37,128 nucleotides of DNA from Rubrivivax sp. (GTDB lineage: Bacteria; Pseudomonadota; Gammaproteobacteria; Burkholderiales; Burkholderiaceae_C): the NCBI GenBank assembly GCA_025458805.1, contig JALORQ010000003.1, positions 1-37,128 of the forward strand, given 5' to 3'. The translations under genes and the position numbers were made by a program. Positions within the stretch are counted from its first letter, which is position 1; each line of letters starts with the position of its first letter. The notes under the pieces were generated by a model that searched no databases, was not told where the DNA came from, and saw nothing but the letters and a program-made list of their open reading frames with translations. Of the stretch, positions 26,361 through 37,128 are shown in pieces.

Positions 26361-27200
26361 TCAGCCCAGCGTGACCGTCGCGCTCAGCGCGGTGCGGCCG
26401 TCCGGCCCCTGCGCCTCGAGCGTCACGGTGTCGCCCTCGGGCATGCCGACGAGCCGCACCGGGCCGAGGTCGAACAGCGGCGCCACGCCGCGGAACGAGA
26501 ACGCCTTCGGCGGGCGCGGCGTGTGCTGCTGCACGAGCCGCAGCAGCAGCACCGCGGTGAGCGGCCCGTGCACGACCAGGCCGGGATAGCCCTCGACCGA
26601 GGTCGCATAGGCGCGGTCGTAGTGGATGCGGTGCGCGTTGAAGGTCAGCGCCGAGAAGCGGAACAGCAGCCTGCTGTCGGGATGCACGGTGCGCGACCAG
26701 GCCTCGCCGGGCAGCGCCGGCCACTCGGTGGCGACCGGCGCCGGCACCGGCGCGCCCGGCTCGCGGTACACGATGTCCTGCTCCTCCTCGAGGCACAGCT
26801 CGCCGCCCTGGACGAAGCGGTAGCCGACGGTGACGAACGCGAGCGAGCCGCTCTTGCCCGACTTCATCTGCACGTCGCGGATCGTGCCCTGCCGCTCGGC
26901 CGCCTGTCCGATGCGCAGCGGCCGGTGCACGGTGATGCGTGCGCCGGCGAACATGCGCCGCGGGTACGGAATCGGCGGCAGGAAGCCGCCGCGCTGCGGA
27001 TGGCCGTCGACGTCCAGCCGCGACTGCGGCGCGCGCGGCAGGAAGTGGAACCAGTGCCAGGGCAGCGGCAGCGCGTCGCCGTCGGCCAGCGGCGCGCCGG
27101 CATCGTCGAGCATCGCCTGCGCCGCCTGCGCCTGCGTGAACGGAAGCGGGTCGGCGACCGTCTCGGTGCGGCCGACCCAGGTACGGAAGTCTTGGTCCAT
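26361..27200 (-). CDS. meh: Mesaconyl-C4-CoA hydratase (FAS1-like/MaoC dehydratase)
   Basis: A 279-residue double hot-dog protein of the FAS1-like dehydratase group. FRTWVGRTETVADPL, WHWFHFLPRAPQSRLDVDGH, RGGFLPPIPYPRRMFAG and FSALTFNAHRIHYDRAYA, with VHGPLTAVLLL after it, form the pattern of mesaconyl-CoA hydratase (Meh) and related HTD2-like enzymes. NAHRIHYD carries the catalytic His. Meh turns mesaconyl-C4-CoA into (S)-citramalyl-CoA. The assignment rests on family likeness plus its place beside mct, mcl and mch. It diverges from the CoA transferase operon over a 142-bp gap and is followed 51 nt later by nfeD. Its start has only a weak Shine-Dalgarno. Confidence 0.83.
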   Translation of the reverse strand: MDQDFRTWVGRTETVADPLPFTQAQAAQAMLDDAGAPLADGDALPLPWHWFHFLPRAPQSRLDVDGHPQRGGFLPPIPYPRRMFAGARITVHRPLRIGQAAERQGTIRDVQMKSGKSGSLAFVTVGYRFVQGGELCLEEEQDIVYREPGAPVPAPVATEWPALPGEAWSRTVHPDSRLLFRFSALTFNAHRIHYDRAYATSVEGYPGLVVHGPLTAVLLLRLVQQHTPRPPKAFSFRGVAPLFDLGPVRLVGMPEGDTVTLEAQGPDGRTALSATVTLG

Positions 27201-27342
27201 AAGCGTTTGCGAACGACGGCTCCAGTAACTCTGAACGAATCCGCGGGATAACCAGCAGGGTTTTCTCGGGGGGCGAATCTACTCTGGCAAACCCTGACAC
27301 CCATCGCTGCGTTGCCGTCCCGGGCGCAGAAGGAAGACGGCC
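27201..27342. promoter_or_regulatory. Divergent control region of the 3-HP cluster
   Basis: These 142 bp separate meh (leftward) from the CoA transferase operon (rightward) and must hold both promoters. The stretch is poorer in GC than its surroundings (for example GATAACCAGCAGGGTTTTCTC). It contains a perfect 8-bp inverted repeat (27256-27296) and an AAGGAAG ribosome binding site (27330-27336) for the GTG at 27343. No textbook sigma-70 boxes are clear. Confidence 0.6.
27256..27296. promoter_or_regulatory. Candidate operator, 8-bp inverted repeat
   Basis: CAGGGTTT (27256-27263) and AAACCCTG (27289-27296) are exact reverse complements, with centres 33 bp apart, close to three helical turns. 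This suits two half sites bound on one face by a dimer or tetramer. No regulator gene is found in the window. Confidence 0.45.
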
Positions 27343-36200: not shown

Positions 36201-37128
36201 GCATCGCCGAGCCCACCGCGCGATTCGGCCAGCCCGAGATCCGGCTGCGCCTGCTGCCCGGCTACGGCGGCACGCAGCGCCTGCCGCGTCTGCTCGCGTC
36301 GCGCCGCGGCGCGGCCGGGCTTGCCGATGCGCTCGACATGATCCTCGGCGGCCGCCCGGTCGCCGGCGGCGAGGCCATGAAGATGGGCGTCGTCGACGAG
36401 CTCGCCGGCGATTCGGGCGATGTCGTCTCGGCGGCGCACGCGCGCATCCGTGACTACCTGGCCGACCGTTCCGGCAGCGTGCTGGGCCGCGCGCTCGCCG
36501 AGCGCCACGCCAGCCTCGCCTCGTGGAACGCGCCGTCACCGCTGTCCCTCGACGAGGCGCTCGCCGACGACCACCTGCAGATGGTGCAGCGGCAGCTCGA
36601 GTGGGCCGGCCGCGCCGGCGCGCGCGACCGCGCGCTGCAGGCCATCCGCACCGGCTGGGCGCAGGGTCTGGACGCCGGCCTCGCGATCGAGGCCGAGCTG
36701 TTCGCGCAGGCCATCGTCGACCCCGAGGGCGGCAAGACCGGCATCGAGCAGTTCATGGAGAAGAAGAGCCCGGCGCTGCCGATCCGCCGCGGCGGCGTGC
36801 GGCTCGCCGCCGAGCAGCAGGCGTGGGCCGAGGGCCAGGTCGCCGAAGGCCGGCTGCTGCCGCGCGGCGCGCCGTTCTACCCCGGCATCACGCCGCTGCC
36901 GGCGTGGCAGTACGCCTTCGGCGTTCCCAAGAACCCGGAGACGGGCGAACCGCGCTTCGGCGAACCGACGAAGAGCGAGGTCGAGCTGATCGTCCCGGTC
37001 GACACGCCCGAGCCGAACGAGGCGCTGGTCTACGTGCTCGCCTCCGAGGTCAACTTCAACGACATCTGGGCGCTCACCGGGATCCCGGTCTCGCCGTTCG
37101 ACAACCACGAGGAGGACGTGCAGGTCAC
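33203..37128 (+). CDS. pcs: Propionyl-CoA synthase (trifunctional), N-terminal ~1308 residues
   Basis: The frame runs from ATG 33203 to the window edge without a stop; 1308 residues of a protein that is about 1,820 in Chloroflexus. Domain 1 is an acyl-CoA synthetase: YTSGSTGKPKG (429-439), YWATEHGGMVW (about 578-588), GRSDDVINVSGHR and the acylatable Lys823 in RSGKYMRR. Domain 2 (about 878-1130) is an enoyl-CoA hydratase with GADIRQML, GGGMEFALA and GQPEI, both catalytic Glu present. From about 1257 a medium-chain enoyl reductase domain starts (VELIVPVDTPEPNEALVYVL) and is cut. Pcs turns 3-hydroxypropionate, ATP, CoA and NADPH into propionyl-CoA and keeps acrylyl-CoA inside a chamber. It lies 24 nt after mch, with GGGA upstream. 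Confidence 0.95.
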   Translation, partial: MPQATTTPRPVPQAHANPVRTRADWEAQRAAALADPGAFHGAIARREIHWFVADQGASGAWLRLDDASGRWTGWDAASGAPVEADLGAGFEPWQRAFNADDAPHWRWFEGGRTNACFNEVDRHVLAGFGAETAFFFEGDRWDMSQDGGRGAPVDAHPITRKTLLLETAKCALALQALGLKAGDRVALNMPNIPSQLYWTEGAKRIGVVYTPVFGGFSDKTLSDRIHDAGARIVITADGGYRNAQIVPFKTAYTDPALDDYVPVAVVRTTIAQRLATLGLAEGDAAQVLTTVDETLAGEVTVLRADAMRGVGRALRELGRAGRLNAAEASRVRTAVAEALVATPPRVEAVVVARHTAQADLVWRAERDRWSHELTDAAGEALLAAARAAGFAVADEAALLALPDADFVRAVWAACPPRPLDAEFPLFFIYTSGSTGKPKGVVHVHGGYTSGVAHTMKIAFDARPGDVVYVVADPGWITGQSYMLSATMTTRCTGILGEGAPTFPHAGRYASMIERYRVRIFKAGVTFLKTIMTDPENVRDVRQYDLSTLRVATFCAEPTSPAVQQFGMELMTPQYINSYWATEHGGMVWTHFYGNPDYPLHADAHTYPLPWIVGDVWVEDAEAGAPPASPFVRDAAAGGVAWRRAEQEEKGEIVIAAPYPYLARTVWGDAEHFSVDGDRVQPGWKGDAKRWVGTYWSRWRGSWAYTQGDFAVRYADGSFSLHGRSDDVINVSGHRMGTEEIEGAILRHKSLDPDSPVGNVIVVGAPHREKGLTPLAFVKPAPGRKLTQDDKRRLTDLVRSEKGAVAVPSDFIEVSQFPETRSGKYMRRMVRALVEDLDVGDASTLKNPESLAELKTAVDDWKRRQRMADEQQMFERYRYFTVQYNDVHGTRVATVTVTNPPVNALNERALDELTVVVEHLSRRDDVAAVVFTGQGTASFVAGADIRQMLEDIRTLDEARALPNNAHLAFRKIERMNKPCIAAIQGVALGGGMEFALACHWRIAEPTARFGQPEIRLRLLPGYGGTQRLPRLLASRRGAAGLADALDMILGGRPVAGGEAMKMGVVDELAGDSGDVVSAAHARIRDYLADRSGSVLGRALAERHASLASWNAPSPLSLDEALADDHLQMVQRQLEWAGRAGARDRALQAIRTGWAQGLDAGLAIEAELFAQAIVDPEGGKTGIEQFMEKKSPALPIRRGGVRLAAEQQAWAEGQVAEGRLLPRGAPFYPGITPLPAWQYAFGVPKNPETGEPRFGEPTKSEVELIVPVDTPEPNEALVYVLASEVNFNDIWALTGIPVSPFDNHEEDVQV

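What the first reader, a model, noticed from the sequence alone, without database searches (positions are those of the whole stretch)
26361..37128. 3-hydroxypropionate bi-cycle gene cluster in a betaproteobacterium
Within 10.8 kb lie meh, two CaiB-type CoA transferases (smt-like), mct, mcl, mch and pcs. mct, meh, Smt and Pcs in particular are signature enzymes of the 3-HP bi-cycle of Chloroflexus. Together they allow malate -> malyl-CoA -> acetyl-CoA + glyoxylate, glyoxylate + propionyl-CoA -> beta-methylmalyl-CoA -> mesaconyl-C1-CoA -> mesaconyl-C4-CoA -> citramalyl-CoA -> pyruvate + acetyl-CoA, and 3-HP -> propionyl-CoA. From memory, partial sets have been noted in Accumulibacter and some marine gammaproteobacteria, but a compact set with pcs in this kind of host appears little studied.
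Basis: partly seen in the sequence, partly recalled or inferred. Interest (0 to 1): 0.92.

Follow-up and report, generated by a model that had tools for sequence, protein, structure and literature searches.

The report
3-hydroxypropionate bi-cycle operon in phototrophic Burkholderiales
A betaproteobacterium that also carries photosynthetic reaction-centre genes has, packed in one apparent operon, the special enzymes of a carbon-fixing cycle best known from the unrelated green bacterium Chloroflexus; the cycle has been reported before from related metagenome-assembled genomes, so this is a good new example, not a new pathway.

Summary
The contig ends inside pcs; its last 99 bases are exactly the start of contig C140 of the same draft genome, which carries more of pcs and malonyl-CoA reductase, mcr. 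All eight signature genes thus appear to form one locus. Order meh to mcr recurs in L017, L019, L021 (Burkholderiales) and L052 (Gemmatimonadetes).

The genome has pufL/pufM and, at 76% completeness, no RuBisCO or isocitrate lyase was found. In 32 hand-picked, partly related genomes, reaction-centre genes occur in 25 of 27 with mcr and 0 of 5 without; but 32 of 55 genus members lacking Mct have them too.

Burkholderiales MAGs with this pathway and predicted photosynthesis are already published (PMC9802188, section 7). Best reading: a horizontally acquired bi-cycle operon for light-driven co-assimilation of CO2 and small organic acids. Autotrophy is unproven. A 20-base gap in pcs on C140 may be an assembly fault or real damage. 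New member of a known kind.

The parts
26361..27200 (-). meh, mesaconyl-C4-CoA hydratase, divergent from the operon
   Evidence: 66-67% identity to the gene in the same position in Roseiflexus/Chloroploca loci; PDB relative itaconyl-CoA hydratase 8khg 211 bits; only weak Pfam MaoC-type hits, 20-26 bits
27201..27342 (.). divergent intergenic region between meh and smtA; short blocks are shared with six Burkholderiales loci, no sigma-70-like promoter and no TGT-N12-ACA motif found
27343..28578 (+). [quoted passage not shown] ATG at 27391 possible)
   Evidence: PF02515 388 bits; clade of first-position Smt, 26 rows, 99*
28590..29825 (+). smtB, second subunit of the same transferase
   Evidence: PF02515 398 bits; clade of second-position Smt, 26 rows, 99*
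29822..31042 (+). [quoted passage not shown] catalytic Asp at residue 164 (C. aurantiacus Asp165)
31068..32111 (+). mcl, malyl-CoA/beta-methylmalyl-CoA/citramalyl-CoA lyase
   Evidence: PDB 4l7z 662 bits; 80-82% identity to Chloroflexota loci L027, L028, L031, L035
32123..33178 (+). mch, beta-methylmalyl-CoA (mesaconyl-C1-CoA) dehydratase
   Evidence: PDB 4e3e 577 bits, 8hgn 449 bits; PF19315 58 bits
33203..37128 (+). pcs, propionyl-CoA synthase, 5' part (ligase and hydratase domains by Pfam, start of the last domain); continues on contig C140
   Evidence: PDB 6eqo 1932 bits; domains; 99-base end overlap with C140

Best explanation
A Burkholderiales bacterium with a type II reaction centre carries the signature genes of the 3-HP bi-cycle as one locus: meh divergent from smtA-smtB-mct-mcl-mch-pcs-mcr. 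Mcr and Pcs turn malonyl-CoA into propionyl-CoA through 3-hydroxypropionate. Smt and Mcl turn malate into malyl-CoA and split it to acetyl-CoA and glyoxylate. Mcl, Mch, Mct, Meh and Mcl again turn glyoxylate plus propionyl-CoA into pyruvate and acetyl-CoA. Shown here: the genes, their order, active-site residues of Mct, the contig overlap leading to mcr, and pufL/M in the same draft genome. Inferred: expression as one operon, enzyme activities, and use mainly for light-driven co-assimilation of CO2 with acetate, propionate, glycolate or 3-HP, with autotrophy possible but unproven. The operon was most likely acquired horizontally, from a source close to that of most of the Gemmatimonadota examined and not from Accumulibacter.
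For: Enzyme identities. mcr of the same genome on C140, 1243-residue open frame, 77% identical to the L019 copy, whose PDB best matches are 8hi4 770 and 8hjw 758 bits. The exact 99-base overlap places C140 next to the window end. Contig composition fits the genome: tetranucleotide correlation 0.979 (flank), 0.957 (operon) and 0.943 (C140), against 0.934-0.988 for 14 other contigs. Same order meh< smtA> smtB> mct> mcl> mch> pcs> mcr> in L017, L019, L021 and L052. mcr in 8 of 8 genomes given, own included. Reaction-centre genes in these 8 of 8 (which examined 11 genomes, 9 positive) and, over the cut-off, in 17 of 19 mcr-bearing against 0 of 5 mcr-lacking genomes of a second, hand-picked set. 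Tree of the six-gene module: Beta 11 rows one side (99*), joined with 6 of 7 Gemmatimonadota rows (100*), away from 11 Accumulibacter rows.
Against: C140's pcs lacks 20 bases against L019, which shifts the frame: if real, Pcs is broken. No expression or activity data. Acetyl- and propionyl-CoA carboxylase, methylmalonyl-CoA epimerase and mutase, succinate dehydrogenase and fumarase were not searched for. The draft genome is 76% complete. Reaction-centre genes without the bi-cycle are common: within 60 genomes of the genus they occur in 32 of 55 lacking a strong Mct and 5 of 5 having one (p=0.15); lack of RuBisCO in 21 of 55 and 4 of 5 (p=0.15); 16 of the 37 puf-bearing genomes have neither RuBisCO (as scored there) nor Mct. 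One operon-bearing genome, G025, does have RuBisCO. Two mcr-bearing genomes (L024, L033) showed no reaction-centre match. Pcs and Mcr trees place two rows labelled Beta (L025, L026) outside the main Beta clade, and Gemmatimonadota row L029 next to it.
Confidence: 0.72

Rival explanations
1. The operon serves only heterotrophic co-assimilation and anaplerosis (3-HP, propionate, acetate, glycolate); no net autotrophic growth occurs.
For: PMC6593406 (passages) argues this for a partial set lacking mcr and pcs, PMC9802188 (section 7) for Actinobacteriota, PMC10674011 (passages) for a phototrophic Porphyrobacter with key 3-HP enzymes. PMC8307300 (passages) describes co-assimilation by the bi-cycle. 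No isocitrate lyase was found in G000, and only matches of up to 52 bits in G136, against about 200 in most relatives, so another acetate route would be useful.
Against: mcr and pcs, not found in the three Accumulibacter genomes tested, are present here and contiguous; malonyl-CoA reduction belongs to the CO2-fixing half.
Confidence: 0.45
2. Photoautotrophy: the bi-cycle stands in for the Calvin cycle in these Burkholderiales phototrophs.
For: Reaction-centre genes in 8 of 8 operon-bearing genomes; no RuBisCO match in 6 of these 8, including G104 (100% complete) and G136 (99%); G088 has only a 207-bit match over the whole domain, probably form IV.
Against: G025 has a full-strength RuBisCO match (446 bits). 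The association is not significant within the genus, where 16 of 37 puf-bearing genomes lack both RuBisCO and Mct.
Confidence: 0.25
3. The operon is decaying: pcs is frameshifted and the route from 3-HP to propionyl-CoA is dead in this strain.
For: 20 bases are missing in pcs on C140 between two copies of GAGGAC.
Against: A short metagenome contig with a gap at a repeated word may well be an assembly fault; all seven window genes as far as they go, and mcr, are open; full-length pcs frames in L017, L019, L021.
Confidence: 0.12
4. The CoA-transferase, lyase and hydratase genes serve another pathway, such as itaconate/mesaconate or glutarate breakdown.
For: Meh's PDB relative is itaconyl-CoA hydratase; Smt scores against glutarate and mesaconate CoA-transferase models, far below their cut-offs.
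Against: Orthology and gene order with Chloroflexota, and pcs and mcr in the same locus.
Confidence: 0.03

Closest known systems
3-HP bi-cycle of Chloroflexus aurantiacus
   Same: Same eight signature enzymes; Mct close to the C. aurantiacus structure; Mcl, Mch, Smt and Meh close to those of other Chloroflexota, where meh is also divergent from the smt genes.
   Different: In C. aurantiacus pcs (Caur_0613) and mcr (Caur_2614) lie far from the smt-mcl-mch-meh cluster (Caur_0173 to 0180; PMC3150298, passages); here both follow mch.
3-HP bi-cycle in Burkholderiales (families Ga0077523, Burkholderiaceae) and Gemmatimonadales MAGs, PMC9802188
   Same: Order Burkholderiales, glyoxylate genes in one operon, predicted photosynthesis (section 7 read; passages).
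   Different: The parts of the main text that I saw do not say that pcs and mcr sit in the same operon; its supplement could not be read. Whether the same species is among its MAGs is unknown.
Partial 3-HP bi-cycle of Candidatus Accumulibacter and Kentron
   Same: Module meh/mct/mcl/mch, with smtA/smtB beside it in L032, L038, L039 and L043; PMC6593406, passages, for Kentron.
   Different: pcs and mcr not found in 3 of 3 Accumulibacter genomes tested; separate clade; no reaction-centre genes in those 3.
mcr and pcs of phototrophic Erythrobacter/Porphyrobacter
   Same: Key 3-HP enzymes in a bacteriochlorophyll-bearing bacterium, thought to serve CO2 co-assimilation (PMC10674011, passages). That PDB 6eqo and 6k8v come from such bacteria is recalled.

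Membership tests
3-HP bi-cycle gene set | Mcr, bifunctional malonyl-CoA reductase | tested here: met
   Contig C140, 1243-residue open frame, 77% to L019 mcr, which matches 8hi4/8hjw at 770/758 bits
3-HP bi-cycle gene set | Pcs, trifunctional propionyl-CoA synthase, intact | tested here: inconclusive
   Orthology clear, but 20 bases are missing in the part on C140, shifting the frame
3-HP bi-cycle gene set | Mct, intramolecular mesaconyl-CoA transferase with Asp165 and cork residues | tested here: met
   11 of 11 residues checked are present (residues from PMC9813914 passages); clade 100*
3-HP bi-cycle gene set | Mcl, Mch, Meh | tested here: met
   Meh by identity and position only
3-HP bi-cycle gene set | SmtA and SmtB | tested here: met
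   Each in its own position clade, 99*
3-HP bi-cycle gene set | Acetyl-/propionyl-CoA carboxylase, methylmalonyl-CoA epimerase and mutase, succinate dehydrogenase, fumarase | not tested
3-HP bi-cycle gene set | Measured pathway activity or autotrophic growth | not testable with these tools
   No strain or assay
NCBIfam TIGR04253 equivalog (2-methylfumaryl-CoA isomerase, Mct) | Score at or above 725 bits | tested here: not met
   673 bits. 0 of 100 genomes of the order searched (own included) reached the cut-off, the best scoring 716 bits; called Mct on active site and tree, not on this cut-off

The most novel reading that the evidence does not exclude
The complete bi-cycle travels between phyla as one operon and settles almost only in bacteria that already have, or gain, a type II reaction centre. 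In several Burkholderiales it takes the place of the Calvin cycle, making them purple bacteria that fix CO2 by the 3-HP bi-cycle.
Probability: 0.25. Interest if true: 0.8.

Novelty: new member of a known kind. Interest (0 to 1): 0.5.

Why it matters
It adds an architecture in which the whole signature set (including mcr and pcs) appears contiguous, in a proteobacterium with reaction-centre genes and no RuBisCO found. Near-complete relatives without a RuBisCO match (G104 = Methylibium sp. NZG, G136 = Betaproteobacteria bacterium M_surface_9_m1_249) are candidates for testing whether purple bacteria can run this cycle; PMC8307300 (passages) states that activity data for it in purple non-sulfur bacteria are not available. 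That mcr was seldom found without reaction-centre genes (25 of 27 genomes have both) is a testable idea about how the pathway spreads.

Tried and rejected
Considered and set aside. (1) Chance or non-coding ORFs: rejected. (2) Wrong bin: operon and flank composition match 14 other contigs, though the six-gene tree joins this copy with L019, a genome of another genus (G136), and not with L017/L023 of its own genus; transfer within the family or imperfect trees may explain it. (3) 3-HP as statistical replacement of RuBisCO inside the genus: not significant. In that hand-entered table I counted G048 as having no true RuBisCO; its match is a contig-edge fragment (155 positions, 204 bits) and may be real, which would make the difference a little larger but rests on one genome; I did not recompute it. 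(4) PpsR-type motif (TGT-N12-ACA) between meh and smtA in 21 loci, and sigma-70-like promoters: none. (5) Shared flank: of the window genes before 26300 only one had a match over 100 bits in the related loci held (a common dehydrogenase, 37% in L085), so only the operon itself is shared there. (6) No Meh tree, structure prediction or fold search was made; trees are quick ones without bootstrap, and in the Mcr tree two rows are under half filled and one is long.

Rows dropped: the Mct homologues at 47-57% identity (L007-L016) were not used as orthologues; L002 has an in-frame stop and was left out of alignment A1, 1 of 42 rows (too little sequence) was dropped before the tree. In one search the Roseiflexus MAG L028 had one match below the cut-off, counted as none.
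Full report
What is there. The window is a whole contig, C172, of a draft genome of 3.16 Mb in 274 contigs, 76% complete. Gene calling by codon-position G+C gives one coherent set. From 26361 to the end lie meh (minus strand), then smtA, smtB, mct, mcl, mch and pcs, all plus strand, with the short gaps or overlaps of an operon. pcs runs off the end.

Identity of the enzymes. Mct: 639.5 and 629.4 bits against PDB 7xkg and 8apq; PMC9813914 (passages) names these as the R. 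castenholzii and C. aurantiacus enzymes. It gives Asp165 as catalytic and names Leu43, Arg47, Ile74, Arg75, Asn100, Phe101, Arg104, Glu133, Asp135 and Tyr136 around the bound substrate; all 11 are present in the window protein, shifted by one after residue 54 (offset from the alignment). Its NCBIfam model scores 673 against a cut-off of 725; 0 of 100 genomes of the order reached it. Mcl and Mch match PDB 4l7z/6kin and 4e3e/8hgn. Pcs matches 6eqo over 1296 residues. SmtA and SmtB fall in the first- and second-position clades of 26 rows each, 99*, and Mct in a clade of 26 rows, 100*, apart from four other CoA-transferases of this genome. Meh rests on position and 66-67% identity to Chloroflexota; it has no NCBIfam match, and its PDB relative is itaconyl-CoA hydratase.

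Beyond the window. The mcr copy that follows pcs in locus L019 found a match on contig C140 of this genome. The reverse complement of C140 begins with exactly the last 99 bases of the window, as two neighbours in an assembly graph would. It continues pcs, then gives mcr as a 1243-residue open frame, then the frame of another, unidentified protein. On C140 pcs lacks 20 bases against L019 between two GAGGAC copies, which shifts the frame. I cannot tell assembly fault from damage.

Relatives. Mapping the seven window proteins shows meh< smtA> smtB> mct> mcl> mch> pcs> complete in order in L017, L019, L021 and L052, cut by contig ends in L018, L020 and L023, and with a single shortened Smt in L022. 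mcr follows pcs in L017, L019, L021, L022 and L052. L024 has pcs> mcr> before meh<. Of 24 chosen genomes, 18 have pcs at the set threshold and 19 have mcr; without mcr are the three Accumulibacter, the Defluviicoccus and a Roseiflexus MAG (L028), none of which has pcs either. In a sample of 150 genomes of the family, own included, 3 have mcr at E up to 1e-100. Contig lengths and coordinates identify G054 as L017 and G044 as L023, both Rubrivivax sp.; G088 as L022; G104 as L021, Methylibium sp. NZG; G136 as L019.

Trees. The six-gene module tree (41 rows, quick method, LG+G4, midpoint root) puts the 11 Beta rows on one side of a branch (99*), joined with 6 of 7 Gemmatimonadota rows (100*); 11 Accumulibacter rows form a separate group (100*). 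Pcs and Mcr trees (23 and 27 rows) also join Beta with Gemmatimonadota (100*), but L025 and L026 fall outside the main Beta clade and L029, a Gemmatimonadota row, lies next to it, so exchange has not been simple. No bootstrap was run; in the Mcr tree L025 and L066 are under half filled and L026 is long.

Metabolic setting. pufL and pufM lie side by side on contig C192. Of 11 genomes examined, 9 have reaction-centre genes, among them all 8 in which one search found mcr (G044 as a fragment) and one without Mct (G002). In the 24 chosen genomes they occur, over the cut-off, in 17 of 19 with mcr (not in L024 and L033) and 0 of 5 without. Together 25 of 27 against 0 of 5, Fisher p = 1e-4. The rows are related, the set was chosen by hand, and three of the five without mcr are Accumulibacter, so the number is descriptive. 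It also does not mean that phototrophs without the bi-cycle are rare: in the genus 32 of 55 genomes without a strong Mct have puf. What the data support is the one direction, mcr seldom without a reaction centre. RuBisCO: no match in G000, G003, G044, G054, G104, G136; present in G025; only a 207-bit match in G088. In the genus sample 50 of 80 genomes have a PF00016 match at 1e-40 and 46 of 80 have puf. Among 60 genomes scored for all three traits the associations with Mct are not significant. Isocitrate lyase was not found in G000, and in G136 only matches of up to 52 bits.

How it most likely works. By the established bi-cycle (PMC8307300 passages; PMC3150298 passages), Mcr and Pcs make propionyl-CoA from malonyl-CoA; carboxylation and the succinate-malate branch, not tested here, lead to malate; Smt and Mcl give acetyl-CoA and glyoxylate; Mcl, Mch, Mct, Meh and Mcl give pyruvate and acetyl-CoA. 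In a phototroph that uses organic acids this both assimilates them and takes up electrons with CO2. I rate the enzyme identities near certain, co-assimilation likely, and true autotrophy possible.

Known or new. PMC9802188 (section 7 read; other passages) reports the bi-cycle in Burkholderiales MAGs of families Ga0077523 and Burkholderiaceae, with predicted photosynthesis and the glyoxylate genes in one operon, and in Gemmatimonadales. Its supplement could not be read. My searches listed no title devoted to a contiguous set with mcr and pcs in Burkholderiales, but I opened only the papers cited (and PMC10576062, passages, which gave nothing on this), several lists were cut, and most subscription papers are not held. 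I therefore file it as a new member of a known kind.

Noticed in passing
L100 (contig C140), reverse complement about base 1036: 20 bases are missing in pcs against L019, between two GAGGAC copies, shifting the frame; an assembly fault or real damage.
   Followed up: partly
27201-27342 and the meh-smtA gaps of L017, L018, L019, L020, L021, L023: Short blocks (around GGGAT and TAACCT) recur in the divergent gap of the Burkholderiales loci: a possible shared operator. No statistical control was made.
   Followed up: partly
L007-L016 (genomes of the same order): Mct-like CoA-transferases at 47-57% identity; only L007 has another cluster gene (an Smt) in the stretch held. Probably a different function.
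   Followed up: no
L053, L059, L065, L067, L070, L072, L074, L075, L078, L085, L086, L088, L089, L092, L096: In 15 of the 80 loci, from Actinobacteria, Deltaproteobacteria, Gammaproteobacteria and others, an Mct homologue at 60-66% identity lies 3-235 bases from a distant Mch-like gene (29-33%) without most of the cluster: an unexplained recurring pair.
   Followed up: partly
window 7409-8359 and 11569-12864, both minus strand: Glutathione synthetase and a GshA-type (PF08886) glutamate-cysteine ligase lie near each other with a K+ transporter (PF02705) and a BenE transporter between them.
   Followed up: no
L022 9092-10000 and L110: This operon copy (G088) has one shortened Smt, apparently the front of an Smt joined to the last 42 residues of SmtB; its pcs frame is open but has about 76 extra residues after residue 275, and a TAG lies inside the mcr match.
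   Followed up: partly
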